From positions 62,001 to 126,000 of the forward strand of contig NZ_JAGHRJ010000004.1 of NCBI RefSeq assembly GCF_017743865.1: DNA of 64,000 nt, given 5' to 3'. The notes below the pieces were generated by a model. That model was not told the DNA's origin. It saw only the letters and a list, made by a program, of their open reading frames with translations, and searched no databases. Numbering within the stretch: position 1 is the stretch's first letter; each line of letters begins with the position of its first letter. Below are positions 40,590-61,199 of this stretch, piece after piece. The position numbers and the translations under genes were made by a program. The stretch comes from Labrenzia sp. R4_2 (GTDB lineage: Bacteria > Pseudomonadota > Alphaproteobacteria > Rhizobiales > Stappiaceae).

Positions 40590-41861
40590 TTACTGTTGCC
40601 CTGCTGCCATGGCGATTGCTTCGTCTGTCTGCTGTAAATCCTCAGCGGACAGGGCCAAATGTGCGTAGAGCTTGCTGTCGGGTTTCAAGATCCCGCTTTG
40701 GCGCAGTGATGCGTTAAACGCTTTGGCCTGCGCCGCGTTGTTCTTCAGCGTATCACGGTAGTCGCGCACCGGGTCTTCGGTAAAGACGACATCGAACAAC
40801 ATGGGTTCGCCAACGATCTGGTGAGGCACGCCCACAGCCGACAGATGCGTCGCGTAGCTTTGCATCAACCGCTCACCGTTTTTCTTGATCTCCTCGTAGA
40901 CGCCTGGTCGCCGCAGGATTTCCAGCGTCTTCAAGCCAGCCACACTGGCAACGGGATTGCCGCTCAGTGTTCCGACCTGAAACGTGAAACTCTTGTCGCC
41001 GACAACTGCCTTGTCGAAATGGGCCATGATCTCGGATCGGCCCGCAATAGCTGCGAGCGGAAAGCCGCCGCCAATGATCTTGCCGAGCGTGCACAGATCC
41101 GGCACCACGCCGTAGTACTCCTGCGCGCCGCCATAAGCGAACCGGAAGCCGGTAACCACTTCATCAAAGATCAGAACGATTTCATGCTTGGTTGCCAGAT
41201 CCCGCAAGGTCTGCAGAAACCCCGGTGCTGGCGGGATCAACCGTTGCAAAGGCTCCACAATGATACAGGCGATTTCGCCGGCATATTCCTCAACCAGAGA
41301 CGTGACGAAATCTGCGTCGTTGAACGGTGCAATCAGCATGTTGTCACGCACGCTTTCCGGGATCCCGGCGGAATCTGGAACGGCTTGCGGGAAATTGACG
41401 AGCGCCTTGGGTGCAAGGCTCATCAAGGCTTCGCCGGACATGCCGTGATAGCCACCCTCGAATTTGAGGATTTTGTCTTTCCCCGTAAAGGCGCGGGCGA
41501 GCCGCATGGCGTACATGTCCGCTTCTCCGCCCGTCGACACGTACCGGACCTGCTCGGCGCAGGCCATGGCCTCGATCAAGACTTCAGCAAGCTCAATGCC
41601 GGCGGCATTGTTGGTGAAGAACGTCATGCCCTTGCCAAGCTGCTCTTGCACCGCGTCAAGGACTTCCGGATGACCATGGCCCAGGATCATTGGTCCGGAC
41701 CCGATCAGATAGTCGATGTACTCTTTGCCATCTTCATCCCAAACCCTCGATCCTTTGCCTTCGCGCAAGATCAAAGAGGGATCGAAATTTCCAAACCCGG
41801 CCGCAGGCAGGACTTCTGCTGCACGGTTTTTCCAATCGGATTGTGAGATATTCGTTTTCAT
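40590..41861 (-). CDS. Class III aminotransferase, glutamate-1-semialdehyde-aminomutase-like
   Basis: A 423-residue PLP fold-type I enzyme of class III. GSGPMILGHGHPEVLDAV, STGGEADMYAMRLARAFTGK, LIFDEVVTGFR (PLP-pyridine Asp) and the Schiff-base Lys in LCTLGKIIGGGFPLAAIAG are all present. It resembles HemL but its position as last gene of the demethylase/enolase operon suggests a catabolic transaminase or aminomutase. It lies 22 nt after the first enolase-like gene. It probably acts on the amine or keto product of the betaine-type substrate; a haem-biosynthesis role is less likely. Confidence 0.9.
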   Translation of the reverse strand: MKTNISQSDWKNRAAEVLPAAGFGNFDPSLILREGKGSRVWDEDGKEYIDYLIGSGPMILGHGHPEVLDAVQEQLGKGMTFFTNNAAGIELAEVLIEAMACAEQVRYVSTGGEADMYAMRLARAFTGKDKILKFEGGYHGMSGEALMSLAPKALVNFPQAVPDSAGIPESVRDNMLIAPFNDADFVTSLVEEYAGEIACIIVEPLQRLIPPAPGFLQTLRDLATKHEIVLIFDEVVTGFRFAYGGAQEYYGVVPDLCTLGKIIGGGFPLAAIAGRSEIMAHFDKAVVGDKSFTFQVGTLSGNPVASVAGLKTLEILRRPGVYEEIKKNGERLMQSYATHLSAVGVPHQIVGEPMLFDVVFTEDPVRDYRDTLKNNAAQAKAFNASLRQSGILKPDSKLYAHLALSAEDLQQTDEAIAMAAGQQ

Positions 41862-41883
41862 GGGCGTGCCTCTCAGGCTGGCC

Positions 41884-43008
41884 TTATGCCACTAGGTCGA
41901 GAATGGAATCTCCGAGCACATCCGGATCGGGCGATACACCCAATCCCGGACCACTTGGAGGAGAAATGAAACCACCGGTCCGCGATGGCGCTGCAGGATC
42001 AATTCTGGGTGCAACATAGCCGGACAAATCGCAGACATTCATGATGCCCTGGCGGGGAGTTGCGGCGGCGACATGAAGCGCTGCAGCTGTTGCGATGTCC
42101 GAACCCCAGGTATCCTCAACACACATGCGCGCGCCGGCATAAAGACACAGATCCCGAGCCTTCCGGAGTTCGGTAATGCCACCGAATTTGGATAGTTTCA
42201 GAGCCACCGCATCCATGCAGCCAAGTTCATAGGCCTTCAAGAGGCTGGTGGTGTCATGGGCGTTTTCATCGAGCTTCATCGGCAAACCGGTGGCAGCCCT
42301 GACTGCAGCGCACTCTTCCAACGTTTGGCACGGTTGTTCCAGCATGATGTCGAGGTCGGCGACGGCACGCCCGACGCGGGTTGCGTCCATCCGGGTCGCA
42401 CCGCAATTCCAGTCGCCATAGACGATCGGGCCAGGACCAACTGCTTCGCGAACTAGCCGCAAGCGGGCAACGTCCGCCTGCCAATCATCGTCCGCGCCAA
42501 GTTTGACCTGGATCTGGGTCATGCCGGTTGCAATCGCGTCTTTTGCGATCCGGACCATGTCGTCCGGCGCAATGCATGTGATGGAGTGATAGAGCGGGAG
42601 TTCATCTGTCTGCAATCCGCCAAGCAGGGTGTATATCGGCAACCCGCAGGCCTTTCCGGTCAAATCCCATAGCGCAATGTCGATGGCAGATTTTGCATAG
42701 ACATGACCGATTAGGTGCTTGTTGCAGGCCGCCATTGCAGCCTCCGCGCCAATCGGGCTCCGCCCAATCAGAACGGGCGCGAGTTCTTCAAGGGCCGGAG
42801 CAACACCGTTGGCATAGGCGGGCAAATAATGAGGGATCGGGCAGACTTCGCCCCAACCGGAGACGCCTTGTTTGGTCTCGATGCGCACAACCATGCTGTC
42901 CACAGTGGCACAGGCCTTGCCGGATGCCATGTAGTAGGTCTCGTGGCTTGTCAGTGGAACCCGCCACAGGGACAGACCCGAGATTTCAAGATCAGGCACG
43001 TTTCTCAT
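41884..43008 (-). CDS. Enolase-superfamily enzyme A (MLE subgroup, racemase/epimerase-like)
   Basis: A 374-residue member of the mandelate racemase/muconate lactonizing enzyme family. Catalytic Lys candidates are K169 in the second-strand motif (IQVKLG; its first position is Gln, as in HpbD-like betaine epimerases) and K271 in ALKLSKFGG; metal ligands are D199, E224 (LEQPC) and D247 (KLDENAHD). The K-K pair implies 1,1-proton transfer (epimerisation) or dehydration. It overlaps enolase B by 4 bp. Substrate is unknown; a betaine or amino-acid-like acid is inferred from neighbours. Confidence 0.88.
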   Translation of the reverse strand: MRNVPDLEISGLSLWRVPLTSHETYYMASGKACATVDSMVVRIETKQGVSGWGEVCPIPHYLPAYANGVAPALEELAPVLIGRSPIGAEAAMAACNKHLIGHVYAKSAIDIALWDLTGKACGLPIYTLLGGLQTDELPLYHSITCIAPDDMVRIAKDAIATGMTQIQVKLGADDDWQADVARLRLVREAVGPGPIVYGDWNCGATRMDATRVGRAVADLDIMLEQPCQTLEECAAVRAATGLPMKLDENAHDTTSLLKAYELGCMDAVALKLSKFGGITELRKARDLCLYAGARMCVEDTWGSDIATAAALHVAAATPRQGIMNVCDLSGYVAPRIDPAAPSRTGGFISPPSGPGLGVSPDPDVLGDSILDLVA

Positions 43009-44120
43009 GCGGCGTCTCCATATACCGCGATCGGGTCGCCAAGAAATTCAGGATCAGGTTCGACACCGATGCCCGGGCTCTGGTCGAAATGAACCGAGCC
43101 TCCGACATTGCGCGCGCCCTGACCGGGAACTGGATCAACAGCAAGATGCGCGTGGCACAGCCAGCTTGCCAGTCTGTTGGTCTCCGGCGTTGCAGCCGCC
43201 AGATGTAGGGCGGCTGTGTCCGCGAACCCGGTTCCACCCGTGTCTTCTATGTGCATCTGCCAACCGACCGAGATGCCGAAATCCCGGATCTGTTTCGCCT
43301 TTGTCAGTCCACCGACCCGGTTCGGCTTGACCTTGACGCCCTGGCAGATGCCCGCCTTCCAGGCATCAAGATGATCTGCAAAAGAATGCAGACATTCATC
43401 CAGCATGATCGGCTGAGGCACTTTGGCGGCCACAAGCGCACACTCCGCAAGCGTTTCACACGGCTGCTCGATCCAGTCGCGGGCGGCAACCGAGTTCAGC
43501 ACCTGTAGAGCGACACCTGGTGTCCAGGCCCGGTTCACATCGAAGGTCACCTGTTCGTCCGGCGCCAAGGCTGCTGAGATTGCCTCAATGCGTTCGATGT
43601 CGGCCTTGAAATTGCTGCCACCGACCTTGGCTGAGTGGGTCTTGTAGCCCTTGGCACTGGCAGCCTGAATATCCGCGATCATTTCGTCTGGCGTACCAGT
43701 TGAAATTGACGAATTGATCGCGACCTCTGCTGGATTTTCCGCACCAAAGAGCCGCCAAAGAGGGGAGCCGCTTGATTTGCCAAGGATGTCCCAGCAGGCA
43801 ATGTCCAAAGGTGCTTTTGCGTACGGGTGTCCGGGCAATTGCAGATCCATCGCCCGATTGACCGTCTCCACCGCCCGCGGGTCCTTGCCGATCAAAGCAG
43901 GTGCCAAGAGCTTAAGAGCTGCGCGCAAACCCGAACCATGGGCTGGCAGGTAAGTATGGCCCCACGGGCACCCTTCCCCCCAACCGGTGAAACCTTCGTC
44001 GGTTTCAACGCGCACGAAGGTGCTGTCGAGCCGCTCGAATTTCAGCCGCCCACCGGAAAGCCAGTAGGGTTTGGAGAGCGGCAGATCGATCTGCCAGACT
44101 GAGATCTTTGTGATCTTCAT
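43005..44120 (-). CDS. Enolase-superfamily enzyme B (MLE subgroup)
   Basis: A 371-residue member with catalytic candidates K165 (THSAKVGG) and K265 (GVKVKPNRVGG), and metal ligands D194 (TFDVNRAW), E218 (IEQPC) and D241 (MLDECLH). The second-strand motif reads S-x-K, unlike the Q-x-K of A and C, and the sixth-strand loop is KPNRVGG rather than KxSxxGG. These differences suggest a different reaction or substrate from its neighbours; dehydratases such as the cis-3-hydroxyproline type are possible relatives. It overlaps both neighbours by 4 bp; a longer upstream frame runs inside enolase C and is rejected. Confidence 0.88.
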   Translation of the reverse strand: MKITKISVWQIDLPLSKPYWLSGGRLKFERLDSTFVRVETDEGFTGWGEGCPWGHTYLPAHGSGLRAALKLLAPALIGKDPRAVETVNRAMDLQLPGHPYAKAPLDIACWDILGKSSGSPLWRLFGAENPAEVAINSSISTGTPDEMIADIQAASAKGYKTHSAKVGGSNFKADIERIEAISAALAPDEQVTFDVNRAWTPGVALQVLNSVAARDWIEQPCETLAECALVAAKVPQPIMLDECLHSFADHLDAWKAGICQGVKVKPNRVGGLTKAKQIRDFGISVGWQMHIEDTGGTGFADTAALHLAAATPETNRLASWLCHAHLAVDPVPGQGARNVGGSVHFDQSPGIGVEPDPEFLGDPIAVYGDAA

Positions 44121-45229
44121 GCGGCCTCTCCATAGGTGACGACCGGATCTCCAAGGGCTCCAAAGTCTGGGGCAACGCCGAGCCCCGCCATGTCGGAGGC
44201 GAAGAGTTTTCCACCATCCGTCTTTGGGGCCGGTGTTCCTGTCGAACGGGTGTTGTAGTTGCAAAGGTCCGTGGTGTTTTGCAGATAATCCGCTGGAGTG
44301 GACGCTGCGAAATGGGTGAGCGTTGCGGTTGCGATTTCGCCGCCCCATGTATCTTCGGCAACAACCGGGATCCGGTTGTCGAGGAAAAAGTCCCGAACCC
44401 GCCGAGCCTTCGACAAGCCTCCAAGGTTCGATATTTTCAGGCACACCAGATCCGCACCCTGATCGGCAACAATCCGTTGTGCGGCCTGCATGCCGGTCAC
44501 GCATTCGTCGAGCTTCATTGGCAGATCGATCCGCCGACGGACCTGAAGGCACTCCTCATAAGTCCGGCAGGGCTGTTCGAAGATGAAGTCGAGATCCCGT
44601 GTTGCCCGGGCCACCCGGAGGGCATTGTCGACGCGCCAGCCCTGATTGGCATCGGCCATCGCTTTTTCGCCGGGTTTCAGAAGCGGAACGGTTGCGCGAA
44701 TGCGGTCTATGTCGCTGGACCAGTCCGCGCCGACCTTGATCTGGAATTGCCGATATCCTGCAGCCCGGTGCCGGTCCAGCTCGGCGATCGTCTCTTCGGT
44801 TCCTCTATGCGGCGCGACCCGGTACATGGGCGCGCCGTCCGTCAGCTTTCCGCCGAGAAGAAGCCAAACCGGTGCATCGAGAGACTTTCCAAAAATATCC
44901 CAGCACGCGGCGTCAAACGGGGCTTTGGCATAGCCGTGGCCCTGAATGGTATGATCAAGGATCTGCTCGATCCGGGTCACCTGCCTCGGATCTTCTCCGA
45001 TCAGAACCGGCGCTACCAACCGCGCGAGCGCCTCAACCCCTTCAGAATGGGCGACCATGTAGTTCTCGCCGCAAGGCGTGAACTCGCCGCAGCCTTGCAC
45101 ACCCGCATCCGTGTCAATTACGACAACCGAGGCCTTTGCCACTGTAATGGCATTGCCCGCTCCCCAGCCGTATGCGCCATCGACATAGGGAAGATCTGTC
45201 TTGTAGACACGGATGCGGGTGATCTTCAT
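44117..45229 (-). CDS. Enolase-superfamily enzyme C (MLE subgroup)
   Basis: A 370-residue member with K165 (FQIKVGAD) and K265 (CLKISNLGG) as the Lys pair and D193 (MADANQGW), E218 (FEQPC) and D241 (KLDECVT) as metal ligands. The Q-x-K motif groups it with A and with known betaine 2-epimerases. The N-terminal capping region (DLPYVDGAYGWGAGNAIT), which sets substrate choice, differs from both A and B. It overlaps both neighbours by 4 bp. An amino acid or betaine epimerase is the best guess. Confidence 0.88.
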   Translation of the reverse strand: MKITRIRVYKTDLPYVDGAYGWGAGNAITVAKASVVVIDTDAGVQGCGEFTPCGENYMVAHSEGVEALARLVAPVLIGEDPRQVTRIEQILDHTIQGHGYAKAPFDAACWDIFGKSLDAPVWLLLGGKLTDGAPMYRVAPHRGTEETIAELDRHRAAGYRQFQIKVGADWSSDIDRIRATVPLLKPGEKAMADANQGWRVDNALRVARATRDLDFIFEQPCRTYEECLQVRRRIDLPMKLDECVTGMQAAQRIVADQGADLVCLKISNLGGLSKARRVRDFFLDNRIPVVAEDTWGGEIATATLTHFAASTPADYLQNTTDLCNYNTRSTGTPAPKTDGGKLFASDMAGLGVAPDFGALGDPVVTYGEAA

Positions 45230-46320
45230 GGGGTCACCACAATGTTGCCCGTGTGCTTCTTCTCGATGAACGCGGTTTGTGCCGCGTGAAACTCCTTGAG
45301 TGGGTAGGTCGCGGCCAAAGCCGGCCTGATTTCATCGCGTTCAATGTACCCGACAACATCTGAGAAAATATGCGGAGCAATAACGGTCGAGCCGGTAAAT
45401 GTCAGGTCGCGCAGGTAGAAGGTCCTCAGATCGAGTTCCACGATCGGGCCCGCAATGGCACCGGAGCACGTGTACCGGCCGCCACGTTTCAAGACATTGA
45501 TCAATGTGCCCCAATAGGGCCCGCCAACAATATCAGCCACAACGGAAACCGTGTCTTTGCCGGTTGCTGATTTCAAGGCGGCTTTGAGATCCGCCGGTGC
45601 GCGTTCAAGAACGTGATCCGCGCCGAGCGCCCTAACGTCTGCATGTTTGGCGGGCGATGCCAGAGCAATAACAGTCGCACCCCGGCGTTTGGCGAGCTGG
45701 ACCAGGGCCGATCCGACACCGCCCGAGGCGCCAGTCACAAGAACCGTATCCTTTGCACCGACTTTGGCGCGGCTGAGCATCCCTTCTGCGGTTGTGTAGG
45801 AACAGGAAAATGTTGCCAGTTCTGCATCAGATAGTGTGCTGACGATGGGGCCGACATTCCGGGCATCAACAACCGTATATTCGGCAAAGCCTCCGTTGCA
45901 CTCGGAGCCGAAATAGCCGGTCTTGTCCATGTTGTCCGGATCGGACCAATCGCGCAGCCAGCAATCGACCATGACGCGCCTGCTCAGGAGGTCTTCAGAA
46001 ACTCCATCTCCCAACGCGACAACCGTGCCAACGGTATCGGCACCCTGAATCCGTGGGAAGGTAATGGGTCTCCCGCCCCAGGTCGGGTCTTCCTCTGCGA
46101 CTTCCTGATAGGCTCCGCCGGTGGTCGCCTCGGAGACTGTTTTCGAATACCAGCCGGAACGGGTGTTCACGTCGGTGTTGTTGAGGCCGCAAGCTCCGAC
46201 TTTGATGAGGACTTGCCCGGCTCCCGGTTCGGGTGTCGGCCAGTCTTCATGCCAGACGATCTTGTCCAGACCACCATGTCCCTCAAGAACCATCGCTTTC
46301 ATTTTGGCGGGAATGCTCAT
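45226..46320 (-). CDS. MDR-superfamily oxidoreductase, probably zinc-independent
   Basis: A 364-residue medium-chain dehydrogenase/reductase. ACGLNNTDVNTRSGWYSK is the N-terminal segment; where zinc alcohol dehydrogenases have GHE it reads QGADTVGTVV, so the catalytic-zinc His is missing, as in quinone-oxidoreductase and related branches. The cofactor motif VLVTGASGGVGSALVQLAKR (about residues 193-212) indicates NAD(P)H. It is coupled by 4-bp overlaps to the demethylase and enolase C genes. It probably reduces or oxidises a carbonyl or enone intermediate of the same pathway. Confidence 0.9.
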   Translation of the reverse strand: MSIPAKMKAMVLEGHGGLDKIVWHEDWPTPEPGAGQVLIKVGACGLNNTDVNTRSGWYSKTVSEATTGGAYQEVAEEDPTWGGRPITFPRIQGADTVGTVVALGDGVSEDLLSRRVMVDCWLRDWSDPDNMDKTGYFGSECNGGFAEYTVVDARNVGPIVSTLSDAELATFSCSYTTAEGMLSRAKVGAKDTVLVTGASGGVGSALVQLAKRRGATVIALASPAKHADVRALGADHVLERAPADLKAALKSATGKDTVSVVADIVGGPYWGTLINVLKRGGRYTCSGAIAGPIVELDLRTFYLRDLTFTGSTVIAPHIFSDVVGYIERDEIRPALAATYPLKEFHAAQTAFIEKKHTGNIVVTP

Positions 46321-48794
46321 TCCGCAGCCACCCCGACTGGTGCATCTGTGCGCGGCAAAATGCTATCCGGATCGTAAGCAGGGACATCAAGAACCCGCGC
46401 GGATCGCGGCCTATTCATGACGACGACTTCCAACTCGGTTCCCGCGTTCGCAGCCTCCGGTTTGACGTAGGCAAAAGCCAGGATCTTGCCGACTGAATGA
46501 CCGTAGGCAATCGAGCTTGTTGCCCCAACGACCTTCCCGTCCATTAGGACAGCTTCTCCGCCATGGCCATCAGCAACGCCATCCGGCTCCACTTCAAGAT
46601 AAACACAGACCCAGGGAAGTGCGCATTCCGCGCTCTTTGCGGTTTCTTCACGGCCGAGGAAGTCACCCTTGTCGAGTTTGACAAAGCGCATCACATCCGC
46701 TTCCGGCAAGGTGACTTCGTTTGTCAGTTCACCGGCGCCCTTGAAGCCTTTTTCGAGCCGCAGGGCATTCATTGCAAAAGACCCGTAGTCTGCAAGGCCG
46801 AGAGGCTGGCCGGTCGCCCAAAGCGCGTCATACACCGCCAGCATGTCTTCCCGGGGCACATGAAATTCCCATCCAAGCTCGCCTGCATAGGACATGCGGA
46901 AGGCCCACAGCTTGCGGCCCGCCACCTCCATTTCCTGTGCCGTCAGCCACCGGAAAGATGCATTGTCCAGCGCGGCCGAGGTGTTGGACGCCAGGATATC
47001 GCGCGCACGCGGCCCGTTCAGCGCCATCGCGCCCCAGTCGGTCGAGAGGTTCCGGACCGTAACGGTTTCGCCGTCAAGGTGTTGGGCCAAGTGATCAAGG
47101 AGCCGCTGCTCGAAGAACGCCGCGCAGACAAGATAGAACCGGTCAGGCCCAAGCCGTACCACGGTCAGTTCCAGCTCAATCCGGCCGCGCCGATTGAGCA
47201 TATGGGTCAAGGCAATGCCACCAACTTTCTTGGGGAGCTTGTTGGCAACGAGCCGATCAAGATAGGTTTCTGCGTCCGTACCGGACACTTCGATCTTGGT
47301 GAAGGCCGAAATGTCCATGATGCCGGCGGTGTCCCGCACTGCCTTCATTTCCTTCGCCACAATGCCATGCCACTCGGGCCGGTTGAAGGAATAATAATCG
47401 CGCTGCTCCAAGCCGTCTTTTGCGAACCAGCGCGGCCGCTCATGGCCATAAACCTCTTCGTAGACCGCGCCCTTGTCTTTCAAACGCTCATAAAGCGGGC
47501 TGGGTTTGATTGGCCGGCCTTCCAGGCGGTTGAAGTGCGGGAACGGAATTTCGTGGCGCAGGCAATAGTCTTCCTTGGCCTTGATCACCTGCCAGTCCTT
47601 GCCGGCATAGTCGCCGAACCGGCGTGGATCAAACTCGCGCATGGAAATGTCGGCGGCGCCATGCACCATCCATCTGGCCAGTTCGCGTGTCAGACCCGGG
47701 CCCCAACCGATGCCGATCTGGGTGCCACAGCAGCACCAGTAATTCTTGACGCCGGGAGCTGGGCCAATCAGCGGATTGCCGTCCGGCGGATGTGAAATCG
47801 CACCGTGAACTTCCCGCTTGATGCCGAGCTCAGCGAAGATCGGCATCCGGTCCATGGCGTTTTCCAGCCAGGGCATGATCCTGTCATAATCGGCCTCAAA
47901 CAGCTCGTTTTCCGCTTCCCAAGGGCAATGGTCTTCCCAAACCGTGTTCGGGTTTTCCTTTTCGTAAATTCCGATCAGACCAGATTTCTGCTCCATGCGG
48001 ATGTAGCCGGAGACCAGCTTGTCATCGCGAATGACTGGGAGTTCTTTATCTAACTCCAGGAACTCCGGAACCGTATCGGTGACGATGTAGTGGTGGGTCA
48101 TGGAGGTCATCGGCAATTGCAGGCCGCTCCATTCACCCATCTGGCGCGCATAGGTGCCACCAGCATTCACCACATGTTCGCAGGTGATGTCGCCAAGCTC
48201 GGTAAACACCTTCCACTCACCCGTCGGCAGCTGCTTGATGTCCTTCGCCCGGCAGCGGCGAATGATCTTCACACCCAACTTCCGCGCACCGATGGCCAGC
48301 GCCTGGGTCACACCGGACGGATCCGCGTGCCCGTCATCCGGCGTGTGGAGCGCGCCGAGAACGCCGTCGAGATTGTAGTAGGGATGCAACTCCCGGATCC
48401 GGTCCGGCCCCACAAGTTCCATCGGAAATTGAAGCGCCCGGCCAACGCTCATGGTATGGCGCAGCCAATCCATTTCGTCTTCAGTATAGGCGAGACGGAA
48501 AGACCCGCAGCCATGCCAGGTCACGGATTGACCCGTCTCTTCTTCCAGTTGCCCGGCATAAAGATCGATGTTGTAGCCAACGCACTTTCCAAGGCCGAAG
48601 CTGGAAGTGGAATGCGTGATCTGGCCCGCCGCGTGCCAGGTCGACCCGGATGTCAATTCCGCCTTTTCCAAAAGCACAACATCGGACCAGCCTTCATGCG
48701 CCAGATGGTAGGCAAGGCCGCATCCCATAATGCCACCGCCAACAATGACAACACGTGCCGAAGACGGCAATTTCGTAGCTCCAAGTTCTGACAC
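46317..48794 (-). CDS. FAD-dependent dimethylglycine/sarcosine dehydrogenase-like protein with GcvT domain
   Basis: An 825-residue fusion of an N-terminal FAD amine dehydrogenase (ARVVIVGGGIMGCGLAYHLA dinucleotide motif; GSTWHAAGQ with the His that holds FAD covalently in the dimethylglycine dehydrogenase family) and, from about residue 420, aminomethyltransferase/GcvT folate-binding domains (TKIEVSGTDAETYLDRLVAN, LGWEFHVPREDM). It should remove N-methyl groups oxidatively and pass the one-carbon unit to tetrahydrofolate. The GTG at 48794 has GGAGATG upstream; longer in-frame starts run across the shared promoter. First gene of the minus arm, facing rpiR across 67 bp. Confidence 0.92.
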   Translation of the reverse strand: MSELGATKLPSSARVVIVGGGIMGCGLAYHLAHEGWSDVVLLEKAELTSGSTWHAAGQITHSTSSFGLGKCVGYNIDLYAGQLEEETGQSVTWHGCGSFRLAYTEDEMDWLRHTMSVGRALQFPMELVGPDRIRELHPYYNLDGVLGALHTPDDGHADPSGVTQALAIGARKLGVKIIRRCRAKDIKQLPTGEWKVFTELGDITCEHVVNAGGTYARQMGEWSGLQLPMTSMTHHYIVTDTVPEFLELDKELPVIRDDKLVSGYIRMEQKSGLIGIYEKENPNTVWEDHCPWEAENELFEADYDRIMPWLENAMDRMPIFAELGIKREVHGAISHPPDGNPLIGPAPGVKNYWCCCGTQIGIGWGPGLTRELARWMVHGAADISMREFDPRRFGDYAGKDWQVIKAKEDYCLRHEIPFPHFNRLEGRPIKPSPLYERLKDKGAVYEEVYGHERPRWFAKDGLEQRDYYSFNRPEWHGIVAKEMKAVRDTAGIMDISAFTKIEVSGTDAETYLDRLVANKLPKKVGGIALTHMLNRRGRIELELTVVRLGPDRFYLVCAAFFEQRLLDHLAQHLDGETVTVRNLSTDWGAMALNGPRARDILASNTSAALDNASFRWLTAQEMEVAGRKLWAFRMSYAGELGWEFHVPREDMLAVYDALWATGQPLGLADYGSFAMNALRLEKGFKGAGELTNEVTLPEADVMRFVKLDKGDFLGREETAKSAECALPWVCVYLEVEPDGVADGHGGEAVLMDGKVVGATSSIAYGHSVGKILAFAYVKPEAANAGTELEVVVMNRPRSARVLDVPAYDPDSILPRTDAPVGVAAE

Positions 48795-48836
48795 GTCACA
48801 TCTCCATGGACCGTGATTTTTCGATGGACAGCGTAA

Positions 48837-48880
48837 TTGTACAAATGTACTCTCGTCAATCATGAATGATATGAATGTAC
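48837..48880. promoter_or_regulatory. GTAC repeats in the divergent demethylase/rpiR promoter
   Basis: The 67-bp gap and the first codons of rpiR hold TTGTACAA (48837-48844) and two copies of ATGTAC (48845-48850 and 48875-48880), exactly 30 bp or about three helical turns apart. RpiR-type regulators bind paired inverted or direct repeats near their own genes. Neither divergent gene has other strong regulatory signals. Role inferred from position and repetition. Confidence 0.5.
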
Positions 48881-49779
48881 CAAAATCTGATTTGAAGGCA
48901 CCGCAGACGGTGCTGGACGACCTGGCTGCCGAGCTTGAGGTGTTGACCCCAGAGCTGCGCAAGGCGGCAAGCTATGTGCTTGAAAATCCGAATGATGTCG
49001 GCGTCAGCTCAATTCGCGAGATCGCAGATGCTGCCGGGGTAAAACCCAACACATTTGTGCGCATGGCACGGTCTGTGGGTTTTGAAGGCTATGAGGACTT
49101 CCGGCAGCCGTTCCGCGAAGCGATCCGCAGCAGAGGTACAGATTTTCCGGACAGGGCCCGTTGGCTGCAGTCCCTATCCAAAGGCGGCCAATTGGGTGAG
49201 CTCTTTGCCGAAATGGCGGCCTGTGCAATCTCAAACATCGAGAACACTTTTGCGGCAACCGATGCGAATGCCATGAAAGCGGCCGCCGATGCGATCGTAA
49301 ATGCGCGGCACACCTATGTGCTCGGCGTTGGCGTCAACAACTCCAACGCCCGCAACTTCACCTACCTTGCAGACATGGCCGTTGACACGATCTGGACGAT
49401 CCCGCGTATGGGGTCTGTCGCAACGGACGACTTGGCCCGGGCAGACAAACGCGATGTGTTGCTCGCCATGACCTGCAAACCGTATCGGACAGACGTGATT
49501 GAAGCGGTTGAGGTTGCCCGGGAACAAGGCCTGACAATCGTCGCAATCTCCGACAGCCCGGCTTCCCCCATTGTGGTCGGCAGCGATCACGCCTTCATCA
49601 TCGACGCCGAAACTCCGCAGTTTTTTCCCTCGTCCGTGTCAACGATCGCGTTGTTGGAAACGCTGCTTGCCTTTGTCATTGCCGACGCACCACCCGATGT
49701 CGTTGCAAACATTGAGAAGTTCCACACCCGCCGCCATGCCATGGGGCTCTATCAGGAAGAATGGAAGGACCGCTCATGA
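48862..49779 (+). CDS. RpiR-family transcriptional regulator
   Basis: A 305-residue regulator with an N-terminal HTH_6 domain (about residues 15-90; LTPELRKAASYVLENPNDVG and SIREIADAAGVKPNTFVRMA) and a C-terminal SIS sugar-isomerase-like domain (VLGVGVNNSNARNFTYLADM, LLAMTCKPYRTDVIEAVEVA). The start has no clear ribosome site; ATG at 48862 or 48871. Its stop overlaps the Rieske oxygenase start by 4 bp, so it is the lead gene of the plus arm and likely controls both arms. The ligand is probably a pathway intermediate. Confidence 0.92.
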   Translation: MNDMNVPKSDLKAPQTVLDDLAAELEVLTPELRKAASYVLENPNDVGVSSIREIADAAGVKPNTFVRMARSVGFEGYEDFRQPFREAIRSRGTDFPDRARWLQSLSKGGQLGELFAEMAACAISNIENTFAATDANAMKAAADAIVNARHTYVLGVGVNNSNARNFTYLADMAVDTIWTIPRMGSVATDDLARADKRDVLLAMTCKPYRTDVIEAVEVAREQGLTIVAISDSPASPIVVGSDHAFIIDAETPQFFPSSVSTIALLETLLAFVIADAPPDVVANIEKFHTRRHAMGLYQEEWKDRS

Positions 49780-50858
49780 ACGTTCACAGCCAGCTGATCC
49801 ATTCGCTCGAAGCGCGGTACTATACCGACCCTGCTCATTTTGAGAGGGAGAAGGACGGCCTGCTGGCACGAACGTGGCAATTTGCAGGACATGCGTCTTT
49901 GCTGCAAAAACCAGGCGATTACTTCACGATCGACATCGCCGGTGAAAGTATTGTCTGCCTGAAGGATCGCGAGGGTGTGCTGCGCGCCTATTTCAACGTT
50001 TGTCAGCACAGGGCCCATCAGCTGGTTCAAGGCGAAGGCAACACCAAGCTGTTGGTGTGCCCTTATCACAGCTGGACTTATGAACTCACGGGCGGTCTGC
50101 GATCCGGACCCAATGTCAAATCAGTCCCAGGATTCGACCGCAACCAAATTTGCCTGAGCACCGTCCAAATTGAGGATTTCTGCGGCTTCCTGTTTGTAAA
50201 CCTGGATCCCAATGCCAAGCCCATGGACGAATGGTTTCCCAATGTCCGGGAAGAGCTGAGATCCTTTGTTCCGCATATCGATCGGCTACAGCCGCTCGAG
50301 TGGGTGGAAATCGAAGAAAACTGCAATTGGAAAGTCTCGGTCGAAAACTATTCCGAATGCTATCACTGCCCCATCAACCACCCGACTTTCGCGACCGGTG
50401 TCATCAAGCCCGAAACCTATGACATCCAGCCGCAAGGGTATTGCCTGCGCCACACAACAGAATGTCAAAATCTGGAGCGCATGACCTATGAGATCGACCT
50501 CGATTCCAACGAACATGCAGGAGACTATTCTTCCTGGTTCTTGTGGCCGTTGTTCTCATTCCAGGTCTACCCGGGCAACATCTTGAACACCTATCACTGG
50601 CGCGCGGTCGATGTGGATCACGTCGTTGTCTGGCGCGGTTGGTACACCATTGACGGTGTCGACAGTGAAGTGGTGCGCCGTCTTGCAGTGCAGGACCGCT
50701 CGACCACGGTCGAAGAAGACATCTACCTGGTGGAATCGGTACAGCGTGGTCTCAAGAGCCGCGGATACAAACCCGGACCTCTGGTGCTGGATCCAGCCTG
50801 CGGTGTGCATTCCGAACACTCGGTACAGGCACTGCAAAGCTGGATGCGCGAAGCATGA
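49776..50858 (+). CDS. Rieske oxygenase alpha subunit, quaternary-amine demethylase type
   Basis: A 360-residue Rieske non-haem iron oxygenase. The [2Fe-2S] ligands are C76, H78 (NVCQHRAH) and C95, H98 (CPYHSW). The mononuclear iron site has H197 and H202 in VENYSECYHCPINH, with E194 in the bridging position; a bridging Glu rather than Asp is a feature of the carnitine/betaine group (CntA, stachydrine and glycine betaine demethylases). It should use O2 to remove an N-methyl group as formaldehyde or cleave a C-N bond. No reductase gene is adjacent. ATGA overlap with rpiR; 4-bp overlap downstream. Confidence 0.9.
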   Translation: MNVHSQLIHSLEARYYTDPAHFEREKDGLLARTWQFAGHASLLQKPGDYFTIDIAGESIVCLKDREGVLRAYFNVCQHRAHQLVQGEGNTKLLVCPYHSWTYELTGGLRSGPNVKSVPGFDRNQICLSTVQIEDFCGFLFVNLDPNAKPMDEWFPNVREELRSFVPHIDRLQPLEWVEIEENCNWKVSVENYSECYHCPINHPTFATGVIKPETYDIQPQGYCLRHTTECQNLERMTYEIDLDSNEHAGDYSSWFLWPLFSFQVYPGNILNTYHWRAVDVDHVVVWRGWYTIDGVDSEVVRRLAVQDRSTTVEEDIYLVESVQRGLKSRGYKPGPLVLDPACGVHSEHSVQALQSWMREA

Positions 50859-51709
50859 CCAGCGAAACCGCGTCTAAGGCTTCCTGGCACATGCCGGACG
50901 TCTGGACGGCTGATCAGAAGCTGTTTCCGCATCAGGTGGGGTTTACCTGTCCGCCCCGGGACTGGGATGCCGCCCCATCAGACTTTCTGCGCATCGCCCC
51001 CCCCTCAGTTGGAGTGCACGGATGGATGCTCCATGCGCCCGACTACGGTCACCAACTGGACCAGCGGAAGCAAAACTTTGCAATGCTGGAGGAATTTGCC
51101 GCGCTGATGGCAAACAATGGTGCGGACGCGTGCGGTCAGGTGGGGTCCAACTGGGTGCACGCCTCTGGCCTTGGCGTTGAGGGTATCTCTGACTTCTGCA
51201 AAAAGATGAGTGACAGACATGGTCTCGCGTTCCACATGGCCGGCGATGCGATGGTTGAAGCCTTGCGTGCCATGAACGTTGAAAAGGTAGCCTTGAACGC
51301 AGTCTATCACTGGCCAAAGTGGTGGCAGGGCACAGTCGGGTTTTTGAAAGAAGCCGGGTTTGATGTGCTTTGGGCAGGCAATTTCGTGGACCAAGGCTGG
51401 TTTTCCACTCAGGACGACGTCAACAAACAACGCTGGATCTTTGAAGGTGACCTTGCAGCAAAAAGCTTCGATTACGTTGCCGAAAAGGCCCCGCAGGCAG
51501 ATGCCTACCTTGCCAACGGCATGGTCAATTTCCGCACAGGTCCCAACCAGCAACCACAACGGATGCTCCACCTCACAAGCATGCTTGAAGACCGCCTTGG
51601 CAAACCGGTGATCGCGCACGACACGGCGCTTTACTGGCGGATTTTCAAATCACTGGAGCTGGCTCCGGCTGGCGAGAACGGGCAACTCTTGAGGTCTCTG
51701 AATGCATAA
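50855..51709 (+). CDS. Asp/Glu racemase-superfamily protein (maleate isomerase/arylmalonate decarboxylase-like), catalytic Cys positions lost
   Basis: A 284-residue protein resembling maleate cis-trans isomerases and arylmalonate decarboxylases. The two half-domains are recognisable: NNGADACGQVGSNWVHASG (about residues 87-105) and the mirror segment PQADAYLANGMVNFRTGP (about 213-230). In active family members Cys occupies the end of these strands; here they read G97 and N221/G222, though C93 is four residues before the first site. It therefore may not be a two-Cys racemase. Overlaps of 4 and 8 bp with the neighbours tie it to the Rieske operon. Function unknown. Confidence 0.78.
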   Translation: MTSETASKASWHMPDVWTADQKLFPHQVGFTCPPRDWDAAPSDFLRIAPPSVGVHGWMLHAPDYGHQLDQRKQNFAMLEEFAALMANNGADACGQVGSNWVHASGLGVEGISDFCKKMSDRHGLAFHMAGDAMVEALRAMNVEKVALNAVYHWPKWWQGTVGFLKEAGFDVLWAGNFVDQGWFSTQDDVNKQRWIFEGDLAAKSFDYVAEKAPQADAYLANGMVNFRTGPNQQPQRMLHLTSMLEDRLGKPVIAHDTALYWRIFKSLELAPAGENGQLLRSLNA

Positions 51710-52445
51710 GATTATCGCGCTATGGGCTGTGCCACGCTCGACCTCCACTGCCTTTGAATGGATGATGCGCCAAAGGGGAGATCTGGATTGTCTCCACGAA
51801 CCCTTTGGCGAAGCCTGGTATCAGGGAGACGACCCGTTCTGGCCGAGGTGGACACCTGGCGACAAGACAACGGCGGGGCTTACTCTGCAAAGCGTTTGGC
51901 AGGACATTCAAGAGCGCGCTGAAAAAGGCCCGGTATTCATCAAGGACTTCCCCCATTATGTGAACCACATGTGGGACCCGGAGTTTCTCTCCAACTTCAC
52001 CCATGCCTTCCTGATCCGCGATCCAGCCCTCACCATCACTTCGATGTATGACAAGTGGCCGGATTTCGACGCCGCCGAAGTCGGGTTTCCAGAACAACGG
52101 GCCCTCTACGATCTGCTCACGGCCTTGAACGGCATACCTCCACCGGTGATTGACAGCAATGACTTGCTTGAAACGCCGGAGAAAACGGTCGAAGCCTTTT
52201 GTGAAGCCGTCGGCATTCCGTTCATAAAGGAAGCCTTGTCTTGGGAGCCGGGTGCCGACACTGGACAATACAGCTGGTGGGATGGCGGGTCGTTTCACGA
52301 GAACCTGAAGCGATCCACAGGCCTAACAACCCAGAAGAGGAAATACGTGGACATTTCAGAGGCTCCAGCAAGGGTCCAGCATGTCCACAAACGCATGAAG
52401 CCGCATTACGACCGGCTCTACGCCAACAGGATTATACCCTCGTGA
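51702..52445 (+). CDS. Sulfotransferase-like P-loop protein
   Basis: A 247-residue protein of the sulfotransferase superfamily. The 5'-phosphosulfate-binding loop is near the N-terminus (IALWAVPRSTSTAFEWMM, residues 5-22), and the 3'-phosphate segment is FLIRDPALTITSMYD (about 107-121), with Arg and Ser in the expected positions. It has no signal peptide, so it would act in the cytoplasm with PAPS. A sulfotransferase inside a demethylase/dehydrogenase operon is unusual. Its start overlaps the preceding gene by 8 bp and its stop overlaps the aldehyde dehydrogenase start (GTGA). Confidence 0.8.
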   Translation: MHKIIALWAVPRSTSTAFEWMMRQRGDLDCLHEPFGEAWYQGDDPFWPRWTPGDKTTAGLTLQSVWQDIQERAEKGPVFIKDFPHYVNHMWDPEFLSNFTHAFLIRDPALTITSMYDKWPDFDAAEVGFPEQRALYDLLTALNGIPPPVIDSNDLLETPEKTVEAFCEAVGIPFIKEALSWEPGADTGQYSWWDGGSFHENLKRSTGLTTQKRKYVDISEAPARVQHVHKRMKPHYDRLYANRIIPS

Positions 52446-53893
52446 CCCAAGTACCAGCTTACTGGCAAAACTTCATCGACGGCGCGTTTGTGGACGGTGG
52501 CGGAGGACGGCTCGACGTTCTCGATCCGGGAACCGGAGAGAAGCTTGCCGAACAAGCGCTGGCGGATGCCGCTGATGTAGACCGCGCGGTCAAGGCTGCC
52601 AAACGGGTCAGCGATAGCCGCACGTGGATGGATCTTCGCCCTGTAGAGCGAGGACGGATTGTCCGCAAAATGGGTGATTACCTTCTGGATCGCATCGATG
52701 AAATCGCCCCGATCCTGACCCGGGAAGCCGGAAAGCCACTCTGGGAAGCGAAGCTCGAAATCGAGGGCGCAGCCCGGTATTTCGAATACTACGGCAACCA
52801 AGCCGAAACCATGGAAGGCCGGTCGATCCCGTTGGGCGGCGGGTATTTCGACTTTACCGTCCACGAGCCTTTTGCCGTTTCCGCCCAGATCATTCCGTGG
52901 AACTATCCGATGGAGATGACAGCACGGTCTGTTTCCGCCGCGCTTGCGGTGGGATGTGCTGTCGTTGTCAAGACGCCGGAACTTGACCCGCTCACGAATA
53001 AATACTTCGCGGATGCGGCCCTCGCCTGCGGCCTGCCGGCAGGGGCCTTGAACATCCTCTGCGGTCTTGGCAAGGAGGCCGGAGCGGCTTTGTCCGCCCA
53101 CACTGACGTCAATCAGATCGTCTTTACCGGGTCTGTTGCTACAGGCTCGGCAATCGCAACGTCAGCGGCCCGGAACGTCGTGCCCTGTGTACTTGAACTT
53201 GGAGGGAAATCGGCTGCGATCGTCTACGATGACGCCGATCTCGACGCTTTCCTTTCGGATGTCCGCTGGGGCATCTACTTCAACGCAGGCCAAGTGTGTT
53301 CAGCCATGTCCCGCGTCATTGCCCATGAAGCCATCCATGACAGGTTGTTGGACGGCATCGTCGGTATGGCGGAAGGCCTCAAGGTCGGTCCGGGTCTCGA
53401 GTTTCCGGAATTCGGTAACAACATGGGCCCGATGATCTCTGAAGGCCAATGTCAACGCGCTGCTGGCATGGTCTCTCAAGCTGAACGCGAAGGAGCCCGG
53501 ATCGCGACCGGTGGCCGGCGCATGAACCGCCCCGGTTATTTTCTCGAGCCGACGGTTCTGACCGATGTTTCACCTGACAAGACAATTGCGAGCGATGAAG
53601 TTTTTGGGCCGGTGCTGTCTGTTCTGAAAGCACGGGACGAACGTGAAGCGCTGGAGATTGCCAACGGTACACCCTATGGCCTGGTGGCCGGGGTCTTCAC
53701 CGCCAATGTCGACCGAGCCATGCGCGCCTCCCGGCAGCTCCGGGCAGGTCAGGTGTTCGTCAATGAATGGTACGCTGGCGGCGTCGAAACGCCGTTCGGC
53801 GGCTTTGGCAAATCCGGCTATGGCCGGGAAAAGGGCCGTGAGGCTCTGCTCAACTACGTTCAGACCAAAAACATTGCAATCAGGATAGGCTGA
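52442..53893 (+). CDS. NAD(P)-dependent aldehyde dehydrogenase
   Basis: A 483-residue aldehyde dehydrogenase of standard length. The oxyanion Asn is in IIPWNYPMEM, the general-base Glu in LELGGKSAAIVYDD (about residue 252), and the catalytic Cys in NAGQVCSAMSR (about 286); EVFGPVLSVL follows. The GTG at 52442 overlaps the sulfotransferase stop; an open frame to 52241 lies inside that gene. It probably oxidises a pathway semialdehyde (betaine-aldehyde- or aminoaldehyde-like). It overlaps the next gene by one base (TGATG). Confidence 0.94.
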   Translation: MTQVPAYWQNFIDGAFVDGGGGRLDVLDPGTGEKLAEQALADAADVDRAVKAAKRVSDSRTWMDLRPVERGRIVRKMGDYLLDRIDEIAPILTREAGKPLWEAKLEIEGAARYFEYYGNQAETMEGRSIPLGGGYFDFTVHEPFAVSAQIIPWNYPMEMTARSVSAALAVGCAVVVKTPELDPLTNKYFADAALACGLPAGALNILCGLGKEAGAALSAHTDVNQIVFTGSVATGSAIATSAARNVVPCVLELGGKSAAIVYDDADLDAFLSDVRWGIYFNAGQVCSAMSRVIAHEAIHDRLLDGIVGMAEGLKVGPGLEFPEFGNNMGPMISEGQCQRAAGMVSQAEREGARIATGGRRMNRPGYFLEPTVLTDVSPDKTIASDEVFGPVLSVLKARDEREALEIANGTPYGLVAGVFTANVDRAMRASRQLRAGQVFVNEWYAGGVETPFGGFGKSGYGREKGREALLNYVQTKNIAIRIG

Positions 53894-54270
53894 TGGATCA
53901 GGATCTATTTGAAAAAGGACTTGCGCAACGCAAGGCAACCCTTGGCGCGGAGTATGTGGAGAAGAACCTTGCGGCCGCCGATGATTTTACACGGCCGTTT
54001 CAGGAAGCAATGACGGCCTGGTGCTGGGGTTTTGGCTGGGGCGATGATGTCATCGACGCCAAGACCCGCTCCATGATGAACCTCGCCATGATCGGGGCGC
54101 TCGGCAAGATGACCGAGTGGGAAACCCATTGCCGCGGCGCTATCACCAATGGCGTTTCCAAGGAGGAGATCCGCGCCATCATCCATGTCATCGGCATCTA
54201 TTGCGGCGTGCCGCAGGCCCTCGAGTGCTTCCGGGTGGCCAAGAAGGTTCTGGAAGAAGCGGAGCTCTGA
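53893..54270 (+). CDS. Carboxymuconolactone decarboxylase-family protein
   Basis: A 125-residue CMD-family protein. The core helix pair is DDVIDAKTRSMMNLAMIGAL and ETHCRGAITNGVSKEEIRAI, followed by HVIGIYCGVPQALECFRVAK, the typical E-H...G...E...H...Y-G-P layout. Known members are decarboxylases or AhpD-like peroxidase partners; there is no CxxC here, so the decarboxylase-like group is more likely. Last gene of the plus arm, followed by a strong hairpin. Its presence beside enolase-superfamily genes hints at a cyclic or lactone-type intermediate, which is speculation. Confidence 0.9.
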   Translation: MDQDLFEKGLAQRKATLGAEYVEKNLAAADDFTRPFQEAMTAWCWGFGWGDDVIDAKTRSMMNLAMIGALGKMTEWETHCRGAITNGVSKEEIRAIIHVIGIYCGVPQALECFRVAKKVLEEAEL

Positions 54271-54368: not shown

Positions 54369-54782
54369 TCAGTAGGCTTTTGGGAGCGGTTTGTACGCGA
54401 CCGCATCGATCTCGACCTTTGCGTCGACCATCAGCTGGGAACGAACCGTCGAGCGGGCCGGACCACCATTCGGGAAATAGCTGGCGTACACCTTGTTGAA
54501 GGTCCAGAAGTCCCGGGTGTCGTCCAGCCAGACGCCGACCTTCACGACATCATCGAGCGTGCAATCCGCAAGGGCGAGCGCCGCGATGACGTTTTCCATG
54601 GTGCGTTTGGTTTGGCTTTCCACGCCGCCCGGTTCGATCTCGCCATTTTCCTTCATGGCCACCTGGCCGGAAATGAAGACAAAGTCCCCAGCGCGTACGG
54701 CTGTTGCAAAGGGAAGAGGTTGTCCGCCGGCACCCGTTTTGCCGCCGCCGAAACGTTCAATCGTGGCTTGGCTCATGTTCAA
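54369..54782 (-). CDS. RidA/YjgF-family enamine/imine deaminase
   Basis: A 137-residue RidA-superfamily protein. PFATAVRAGDFVFISGQVAM is the family entry, QTKRTMENVIAALALADCTL the central helix, and NGGPARSTVRSQLMVDAKVE carries the catalytic Arg region (RSxV). Such proteins hydrolyse 2-aminoacrylate-type enamines to ketoacids and ammonia. It is last in the TRAP operon, two genes after a PLP-dependent D-amino-acid dehydratase/aldolase-like enzyme, whose reactive enamine product it could clear. Start is ATG 54782 or 54776. Confidence 0.94.
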   Translation of the reverse strand: MNMSQATIERFGGGKTGAGGQPLPFATAVRAGDFVFISGQVAMKENGEIEPGGVESQTKRTMENVIAALALADCTLDDVVKVGVWLDDTRDFWTFNKVYASYFPNGGPARSTVRSQLMVDAKVEIDAVAYKPLPKAY

Positions 54783-54797
54783 GCATCCTTTTTAAAT

Positions 54798-55688: not shown

Positions 55689-55691
55689 GGG

Positions 55692-61178: not shown

Positions 61179-61199
61179 CTTCCTCCCAGAATGCGGTCT

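What the first reader, a model, noticed from the sequence alone, without database searches (positions are those of the whole stretch)
40590..54270. Two divergent, tightly overlapping operons that may encode an undescribed methylated-amine catabolic pathway
Seen: 12 genes around a 67-bp promoter, with overlaps of 1-8 nt at nine of ten within-arm junctions. Families: FAD/GcvT demethylase, zinc-less MDR enzyme, three enolase-superfamily enzymes and a class III aminotransferase on one arm; RpiR, quaternary-amine-type Rieske oxygenase, Asp/Glu-racemase-fold protein, sulfotransferase-like protein, aldehyde dehydrogenase and CMD protein on the other. Known: Rieske and DMGDH-type enzymes remove N-methyl groups one after another, and HpbD-type enolases epimerise betaines. 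Inference: the cluster demethylates a betaine-like compound, then epimerises, transaminates and oxidises its skeleton. I know of no described pathway with this full set.
Basis: partly seen in the sequence, partly recalled or inferred. Interest (0 to 1): 0.8.

Follow-up and report, generated by a model that had tools for sequence, protein, structure and literature searches.

The report
Uncharacterised marine betaine-degradation gene cluster
A two-armed gene cluster, recurring in many marine bacteria, probably strips the methylated nitrogen from an unidentified betaine; relatives of the cluster also carry a gene known so far as a dimethyl-sulfide-releasing enzyme, which hints that this enzyme may have another natural job.

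Summary
In detail: 12 intact genes, two divergent arms, a 67-bp gap, nine of ten within-arm junctions overlapping by 1-8 nt. The Rieske protein matches 64 of 394 genomes of a sampled Shimia-type family, 62 at 60% identity or more; at 40% identity or more, DmgdhL, RpiR and Rieske are together in 58 of those 64 loci. The core is AT3-EnoA-DmgdhL || RpiR-Rieske (38 of 64); the other genes come and go. The Rieske keeps the quaternary-ammonium marks of CntA but has a different, conserved pocket. Unexpectedly, DddQ-type "DMSP lyase" cupins lie in 20 of 64 clusters, with MDR as next typed gene in 17; a 2012 paper noted an MDR gene linked to dddQ that does not replace the acrylate reductase. The racemase-fold protein has Gly at both catalytic-Cys positions. 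Best reading: catabolism of an unidentified quaternary-ammonium carboxylate by N-demethylation, alpha-carbon chemistry and transamination. The substrate is not determined, and Tyr203 of the Rieske argues for C-N cleavage rather than demethylation.

The parts
40590..41861 (-). AT3: class III PLP aminotransferase, HemL-like but under the HemL cut-offs
   Evidence: Pfam Aminotran_3 208.6 bits; HemL TIGR00713 367 < 527.3 cut-off; TLGK motif Lys kept in 47 of 47; 41 of 64 Rieske-centred loci, next typed gene to EnoA in 39
41884..43008 (-). EnoA: enolase-superfamily enzyme, the core enolase of the cluster
   Evidence: MR_MLE_N/C; cis-3-OH-L-Pro dehydratase model 340.6 < 500; metal ligands D199/E224/D247 and both Lys kept in 59 of 59; 45 of 64 loci
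43005..44120 (-). EnoB: second enolase (accessory)
   Evidence: 604.8 bits to 2qdd, 366.7 to 3eez; catalytic residues kept in 43 of 43; 30 of 64 loci
44117..45229 (-). EnoC: third enolase (accessory)
   Evidence: 658.8 bits to 2rdx; catalytic residues kept in 28 of 28; 17 of 64 loci
45226..46320 (-). MDR: medium-chain reductase/dehydrogenase (accessory); orthologues sit beside DddQ-type cupins elsewhere
   Evidence: ADH_N + ADH_zinc_N; 36 of 64 loci, next typed gene to a cupin in 17
46317..48794 (-). DmgdhL: dimethylglycine-dehydrogenase-like FAD + folate-binding GcvT protein
   Evidence: DAO + FAO_M + GCV_T + GCV_T_C; 549 bits over 12-806 to dimethylglycine dehydrogenase 4pab; STWHAAG kept in 72 of 72; 59 of 64 loci
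48795..48861 (.). 67-bp divergent promoter region, candidate RpiR operator
   Evidence: sequence; shared words GTCAATC/CAATCAT/CAAATGT in 40-42 of 69 distinct orthologous regions, each with 20 flanking bases
48862..49779 (+). RpiR-family regulator (HTH_6 + SIS)
   Evidence: 60 of 64 loci, next typed gene to DmgdhL in 58 and to Rieske in 59
49776..50858 (+). Rieske oxygenase, group V (Va signature)
   Evidence: 209.7 bits to CntA 6y8j over 14-354; Y203-type Tyr 81 of 82, E205 and C206/C209 82 of 82
50855..51709 (+). AmdL: AMDase/maleate-isomerase-fold protein with Gly at both catalytic-Cys positions (accessory, found with Sulf)
51702..52445 (+). Sulf: PAPS-type sulfotransferase fold (accessory)
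   Evidence: Sulfotransfer_5 62.1 bits; AF2 pLDDT 90.1; Foldseek rank 1 4gbm curacin ST, VIA rank 1 4gox olefin-synthase ST
52442..53893 (+). ALDH: aldehyde dehydrogenase
   Evidence: Aldedh 508 bits; best NCBIfam row betaine-aldehyde DH 407 < 668.6; 25 of 64 loci
53893..54270 (+). CMD: carboxymuconolactone-decarboxylase-family protein
   Evidence: CMD 66.6 bits; PcaC 119.7 < 155.7; 43 of 64 loci

Best explanation
The cluster is an RpiR-regulated catabolic unit for a marine quaternary-ammonium carboxylate (a betaine). Shown: conserved gene order, co-inheritance, intact catalytic residues. Inferred: the Rieske oxygenase, drawing electrons from a reductase encoded elsewhere, attacks the quaternary ammonium group and yields a tertiary amine; the DMGDH-like flavoprotein then removes the remaining N-methyl groups as methylene-folate; EnoA abstracts the proton next to the carboxylate (epimerisation or dehydration); AT3 exchanges the freed amino group for a carbonyl; ALDH, where present, oxidises the semialdehyde. 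EnoB, EnoC, MDR, the DddQ-type cupin (in relatives) and the AmdL-Sulf pair are accessory modules that let particular strains feed related substituted compounds into the same core. Control by the RpiR protein is inferred from its place between the arms.
For: At 40% identity or more, DmgdhL, RpiR and Rieske together in 58 of 64 loci and the five-gene core in 38 of 64; contig-end truncations count as misses, 13 of the 64 stretches being under 16 kb. Rieske closest to CntA among solved structures, with the group V bridging Glu and Cys pair in 82 of 82 (PMC10952381 passages). DMGDH architecture with the folate domain. A GFA-type (formaldehyde-activating) protein is the next typed gene to the Rieske in 16 of 64 (one such protein was checked by Pfam, the rest by BLASTP), as expected if formaldehyde is released. 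A BCCT transporter beside the cluster in L026 (Pfam), with 31-36% BLASTP relatives in L009, L098 and L209. Three intact enolases. AmdL never without the Rieske: 20 of 20 clear AmdL genomes.
Against: Tyr at position 203 puts the Rieske with CntA and choline-monooxygenase types, not with the demethylating group Vb. No reductase is among the window's 12 genes. No family of untyped neighbours recurs in more than 6 of 64 loci, so no transporter marks the minimal clusters (neighbours were clustered, not annotated one by one). No substrate, expression or mutant data. AT3 resembles GSA aminomutases, which move an amino group within one molecule (recalled), so transamination with a second amino acid is not assured. 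6 of 64 loci lack the DmgdhL-RpiR-Rieske trio at 40% identity (G125, G145, G226, G267, G364, G378); some end at a contig border, G125 has RpiR just under the limit, and G364 has only a 39% Rieske.
Confidence: 0.55

Rival explanations
1. The Rieske is a C-N-cleaving carnitine-type oxygenase: it oxidises the CH2 next to N+ and releases trimethylamine plus a semialdehyde, which ALDH oxidises; DmgdhL and AT3 handle a separate, dimethylated or free-amine form of the compound.
For: Tyr203 in 81 of 82, the group Va mark (PMC7948474 passages); best PDB relative is CntA; ALDH is the next typed gene to the Rieske in 14 of 64 loci and its best NCBIfam row is betaine-aldehyde DH, under cut-off.
Against: The carnitine-pocket positions all differ (Y225T, F258Y, N270Q, Y295R, Y315D, F319T), each conserved in 81 or 82 of 82 here (C-terminal alignment less certain). 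The near-constant DmgdhL partner would be unexplained. No ALDH of 40% identity or more was seen in 39 of 64 loci.
Confidence: 0.2
2. It is a proline-betaine or hydroxyproline-betaine pathway of the HpbD/Stc2 kind: enolases as betaine epimerases, Rieske and flavoenzyme as N-demethylases.
For: [quoted passage not shown]) and match 2pmq/4h2h, which I recall as HpbD structures.
Against: All three are under that model's 500-bit cut-off. The Rieske is nearer CntA than 4qup, a demethylase that I recall as Stc2 (209.7 v 111.7 bits). A class III aminotransferase has no evident role on a ring nitrogen. The 12 families include no proline-ring enzyme; flanking genes were not annotated for it.
Confidence: 0.1
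3. It is a DMSP-related (sulfonium) cluster, since dddQ-type genes lie in many copies.
For: DddQ-type cupins with all six catalytic residues in 31 of 32 in-cluster copies; a dddQ mutant of R. pomeroyi makes 97% less DMS and dddQ is induced by DMSP (PMC5395565 passages).
Against: No cupin was seen in 44 of 64 loci (contig ends included), nor in the window's cluster. DMGDH, aminotransferase and betaine-type Rieske have no evident use for DMSP. [quoted passage not shown] dddP and dddQ are induced only 1-4-fold by DMSP against 40-fold for dddW (PMC4437653 passages).
Confidence: 0.07
4. Two or more unrelated pathways have been packed together; the AmdL-Sulf pair in particular is a separate function that merely uses the same promoter.
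For: AmdL-Sulf is absent from 50 of 64 loci and sits elsewhere in some genomes (L090 v L136, L095 v L135). One genome of the window's genus keeps only remnants of it beside RpiR, Rieske and ALDH (L037).
Against: All 20 genomes with clear AmdL also have the Rieske (p about 1e-17, not corrected for kinship).
Confidence: 0.08

Closest known systems
Carnitine monooxygenase CntA/CntB, then malic semialdehyde dehydrogenase
   Same: Rieske with Tyr203, bridging Glu205 and the Cys206/Cys209 pair; an aldehyde dehydrogenase near by
   Different: Named pocket residues differ and are conserved here; no reductase among the 12 genes; flavoenzyme, enolase and aminotransferase added
Hydroxyproline/proline-betaine catabolism (HpbD, Stc2)
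   Same: Enolase-superfamily enzymes plus Rieske plus demethylating flavoenzyme (pathway features recalled)
   Different: Rieske of the other subclade by residue 203; class III aminotransferase; none of the enolases reaches the 3-hydroxyproline dehydratase cut-off
Glycine betaine to dimethylglycine to sarcosine route (GbcAB, DMGDH)
   Same: Rieske followed by a folate-linked DMGDH-type enzyme (route recalled)
   Different: GbcA model 154 < 670 bits; enolase and aminotransferase suggest a larger, substituted carbon skeleton
dddQ gene neighbourhood of Ruegeria pomeroyi (SPO1593, SPO1596) and Roseovarius nubinhibens (ISM_14095, dddQ1/dddQ2)
   Same: Cupin of the DddQ type linked to an MDR gene, as in 17 of 64 loci here
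   Different: The passages read report only the MDR link; I have not read those two genomes; the window's copy has no cupin
Enolase structures 2rdx, 2qdd/3fvd, 3eez, 4mgg
   Same: Near relatives of EnoC (2rdx) and EnoB (2qdd), more distant relatives of EnoA (4mgg)
   Different: Molecule names in the PDB table give no substrate; I did not search for papers on these entries one by one

Membership tests
Group V (quaternary-ammonium) Rieske oxygenase | Bridging Glu205 and Cys-X-X-Cys pair next to the mononuclear iron (the pair in some members only) | tested here: met
   82 of 82 sequences; features from PMC7948474 and PMC10952381 passages
Group Va subclade | Tyr or Phe at position 203 | tested here: met
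   Tyr in 81 of 82, His in 1; no tree was built
Carnitine monooxygenase CntA | Pocket residues Y225, F258, N270, Y295, Y315, F319 | tested here: not met
   T, Y, Q, R, D, T in the query; T at 225 in 81 of 82, the others in 82 of 82
Group Vb N-demethylase (Stc2, GbcA) | Asn at position 203 | tested here: not met
   Tyr instead
Dimethylglycine dehydrogenase | DAO + FAO_M + GCV_T + GCV_T_C architecture, full-length similarity | tested here: met
Dimethylglycine dehydrogenase | Dimethylglycine as substrate | not testable with these tools
   sequence only
[quoted passage not shown]
   EnoA 340.6, EnoB 313.9, EnoC 403.3 bits
Enolase superfamily, MLE-type acid/base chemistry | Three metal ligands and two catalytic Lys (positions recalled) | tested here: met
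   EnoA 59 of 59, EnoB 43 of 43, EnoC 28 of 28
Glutamate-1-semialdehyde aminomutase HemL | NCBIfam cut-offs 398 and 527.3 | tested here: not met
   387.3 and 367 bits
Arylmalonate decarboxylase / Asp-Glu racemase superfamily | AMDase/maleate-isomerase fold | tested here: met
Arylmalonate decarboxylase / Asp-Glu racemase superfamily | One or two catalytic Cys | tested here: not met
   Gly97 and Gly222, invariant in 37, stand where paralogue L076 has Cys; at 222 the alignment shows it, at 97 MAFFT placed a gap in L076 and I aligned the strand by eye; Cys roles recalled
PAPS sulfotransferase | Fold | tested here: met
PAPS sulfotransferase | PAPS-dependent transfer | not testable with these tools
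   PRSTST and RDP-S motifs conserved, motif meaning recalled
DddQ DMSP lyase (cupins in relatives, not in the window cluster) | Residues Y120, H123, H125, E129, Y131, H163 | tested here: met
   31 of 32 cupins of the Rieske-centred loci plus L012, L013, L021; 16 of 16 others, some of them also cluster-linked
DddQ DMSP lyase | A cupin gene in the window's own cluster | tested here: not met
   G000 has one PF16867 match, on another contig

The most novel reading that the evidence does not exclude
This cluster is the genomic home of DddQ. The 'DMSP lyase' cupins evolved as beta-elimination lyases for intermediates of a betaine pathway, and DMSP cleavage (Km 22 mM for R. lacuscaerulensis DddQ) is a side activity. 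The true substrate would carry a trimethylammonium or a sulfated hydroxyl beta to the carboxylate: enolases, cupin, and the sulfotransferase plus Cys-less AmdL would all be alternative ways of making or using a carbanion next to the carboxylate. The headgroup of the algal betaine lipid DGTA (2-hydroxymethyl-3-trimethylammonio-propanoate, structure recalled) would suit these enzymes, but nothing here singles it out.
Probability: 0.25. Interest if true: 0.85.

Novelty: new variant of a known kind. Interest (0 to 1): 0.62.

Why it matters
A catabolic unit present in about one in six sampled genomes of the Shimia-type family has no assigned substrate in the papers I could search, so a common marine compound may be missing from carbon and nitrogen budgets. 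It gives a shared context to several enolase structures that carry only generic names. [quoted passage not shown] If DddQ belongs to a betaine pathway, dddQ counts in metagenomes may overstate DMS-producing capacity.

Tried and rejected
Homarine as substrate: suggested by memory, the paper searches listed nothing of this kind (listings only); dropped. Betaine-lipid headgroup catabolism: no paper listed that describes the genes; kept only as a novel case. A fixed 12-gene pathway: rejected by the accessory pattern. A recurrent transporter beside the minimal clusters as a substrate clue: the most frequent family of untyped neighbours occurred in 6 of 64 loci, an ABC-ATPase-like sequence at a median of 7.8 kb from the Rieske. 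Dimethylglycine/choline phospholipid work in Phaeobacter (PMC10132767, passages): different genes in the passages seen. Whether the characterised R. pomeroyi DddQ itself lies in the cluster could not be shown: no close match was in the sample (best 61%); only the published MDR link is available. An inverted-repeat operator was sought between the arms: conserved words found, but part overlaps the RpiR start, and the shuffles kept only base composition, so it is a candidate. For AmdL the coordinates of the model are not in the Python box, so clustering of the four invariant His (55, 60, 66, 102) as a metal site could not be checked. 5 of the 30 best DddQ-like hits (G230, G402, G337, G302, G202) were not fetched in a wide stretch. 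The first counts (RpiR 61, DmgdhL 60, AT3 43, EnoB 31, ALDH 26) included best hits under 40% identity; the recount at 40% or more is the one used. For residue counts frames with short or weak alignments were dropped, among them the broken Rieske of L015; near-identical sequences were not removed.
Full report
OBSERVATION. The left arm runs AT3, EnoA, EnoB, EnoC, MDR, DmgdhL on the minus strand; the right arm RpiR, Rieske, AmdL, Sulf, ALDH, CMD on the plus strand. Nine of ten within-arm junctions overlap by 1-8 nt and the arms are 67 bp apart. Pfam agrees with the family labels. No NCBIfam row shown passes its cut-off for any of the 12 (only the best 25 rows are shown for some proteins), so none is an assigned enzyme by that library. 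The window lies in a 5.66-Mb genome; an AmdL 98% identical belongs to a bin named "Alphaproteobacteria bacterium AO1-B" and the next closest loci are Roseibium/Labrenzia.

RECURRENCE. A search with AmdL gave 24 loci in Roseibium, Shimia, Roseovarius, other Rhodobacteraceae, a Hyphomicrobiales bin, Planktomarina, Granulosicoccaceae and a Chromatiales symbiont. AmdL and Sulf are both present in 24 of 24; all 12 genes in 4 of 24 (L003, L004, L006, L023), many loci being cut by contig ends or by the 20-kb limit. In the window's genus, 9 of 37 genomes, own included, have full AmdL. In a sample of 394 genomes of the family of L015, AmdL matches in 27 at E <= 1e-3, of which 20 are clear orthologues (E < 1e-99), and the Rieske in 64 at E <= 1e-90, 62 of them at 60% identity or more.

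CORE AND ACCESSORIES. I took one Rieske-centred stretch per genome for all 64 (plus L009 and L015) and typed the genes by BLASTP. Counted at 40% identity or more: Rieske 63, RpiR 60, DmgdhL 59, EnoA 45, CMD 43, AT3 41, MDR 36, EnoB 30, ALDH 25, EnoC 17, AmdL 14, Sulf 14; at any identity above the score limit, DddQ-type cupin 20, GFA 17, BCCT 2, FrhB 2. Truncated contigs count as misses; 13 of 64 stretches are under 16 kb. The trio DmgdhL, RpiR, Rieske is whole in 58, the five-gene core in 38, and five loci show just AT3-EnoA-DmgdhL || RpiR-Rieske of the typed genes (L183, L185, L186, L212, L214). One of the 64 (G364) has a 39% Rieske and nothing else of the cluster. So the window carries a long form of a small core. 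One genome of the window's genus shows AmdL and Sulf reduced to remnants with RpiR, Rieske and ALDH frames still there (L037).

RIESKE. The best solved relative is carnitine monooxygenase CntA, 209.7 bits over almost the whole protein, against 111.7 for 4qup, a demethylase. From passages of PMC7948474 and PMC10952381: group V enzymes act on quaternary ammonium compounds, Tyr/Phe203 marks group Va, Asn203 the demethylating group Vb. Here Tyr stands at 203 in 81 of 82 sequences (one His), Glu205 and both Cys in 82 of 82, while six pocket residues named for carnitine are all replaced, by residues kept in 81 or 82 of 82. It therefore looks like an enzyme that binds a quaternary ammonium group, with a substrate other than carnitine. 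The Tyr speaks for oxidation of the chain carbon rather than of a methyl. I still favour demethylation because a DMGDH-type enzyme, which should need a tertiary amine (general knowledge), is its near-constant companion, and a GFA-type formaldehyde protein is the next typed gene in 16 of 64; confidence is moderate for that reason.

OTHER CORE ENZYMES. DmgdhL matches dimethylglycine dehydrogenase over its whole length (4pab 549 bits) and keeps STWHAAG in 72 of 72, whose His I recall as the covalent flavin site. EnoA, EnoB and EnoC are 35-37% identical to each other, so they are old paralogues; all keep metal ligands and both lysines. EnoC is a near relative of 2rdx (658.8 bits), EnoB of 2qdd (604.8 bits), structures with only generic names in the PDB table (their organism I recall as Roseovarius nubinhibens). 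AT3 is HemL-like but under both HemL cut-offs.

DDDQ LINK. Cupins of Pfam DMSP_lyase lie in the left arm of many clusters. One of them matches the DddQ structures 5cu1, 4la2 and 4b29, and 31 of 32 in-cluster copies keep all six residues reported as essential in R. lacuscaerulensis DddQ (residues from PMC4437653). The cupin is found in 20 of 64 loci and has MDR as next typed gene in 17. Of the 30 best matches to R. pomeroyi DddQ in the 394 genomes, I looked round 25; 15 lie beside MDR and/or enolase orthologues of this cluster, two of these beside MDR alone, and 10 do not. Of those 10, five have more distant DMGDH or Rieske paralogues near by (L143, L144, L145, L149, L150). Cupin and Rieske co-occur more than expected (33 genomes with both, 31 and 42 with one, 288 with neither; Fisher p about 6e-11, not corrected for kinship), yet 42 genomes have the cupin without the Rieske. 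Published facts seen as passages: dddQ of R. pomeroyi and dddQ1/dddQ2 of R. [quoted passage not shown] nubinhibens one does not correct the acrylate sensitivity of a yhdH mutant (PMC3338564); dddP and dddQ are only 1-4-fold DMSP-induced (PMC4437653); [quoted passage not shown] Against this reading, the same review reports 97% less DMS in an R. pomeroyi dddQ mutant (20% less in R. nubinhibens), induction of dddQ by DMSP, and mounting evidence for physiological relevance; other lyases also have millimolar Km. The window's own cluster has no cupin; its genome has one PF16867 match elsewhere.

LITERATURE. Searches for the combination: DddQ with mandelate racemase or dimethylglycine dehydrogenase, at least two of three terms, 0 papers; dimethylglycine dehydrogenase, mandelate racemase, Rieske, RpiR, roseobacter, three of five, 1 paper, which concerns phospholipid headgroups. 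Also, of which I saw listings and the passages cited. The library holds only open papers: a proline-betaine pathway paper was not held, and I did not look up the original dddQ paper, so a prior description cannot be excluded.

VERDICT. A real, conserved catabolic unit, undescribed as far as searched; the enzyme families are known, the combination and the dddQ link are the interest. The substrate is unknown.

Noticed in passing
window 54369-62299: A second, separate cluster directly downstream: RidA, PfkB kinase, D-serine-dehydratase/alanine-racemase-fold protein, MlrC-type metallopeptidase, TRAP DctP and DctM on the minus strand, and a second RpiR regulator 61337-62299. RidA, PfkB and the racemase-fold gene were found beside the main cluster only in L023 of the 24 loci.
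   Followed up: partly
window 48795-48870: Conserved words GTCAATC, CAATCAT and CAAATGT in 40-42 of 69 distinct DmgdhL-RpiR gaps, TCATnnATGA in 20 of 69 against a shuffle mean of 0.145: candidate RpiR operator, partly overlapping the RpiR start.
   Followed up: partly
L037: AmdL reduced to a 40-residue remnant and Sulf shortened, with RpiR, Rieske and ALDH frames still present, in a genome of the window's genus.
   Followed up: no
L144 and L145: DddQ-like cupins next to distant DMGDH and Rieske paralogues (25-32%): possibly other betaine clusters with their own cupin.
   Followed up: no
L013 1369-3282: Three different DddQ-type cupins in tandem inside one cluster.
   Followed up: partly
EnoB orthologues: Two subtypes at one position: EDTGG-like in 10 of 43 (as in the window) and MATGG-like in 33 of 43, perhaps different substrates.
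   Followed up: no
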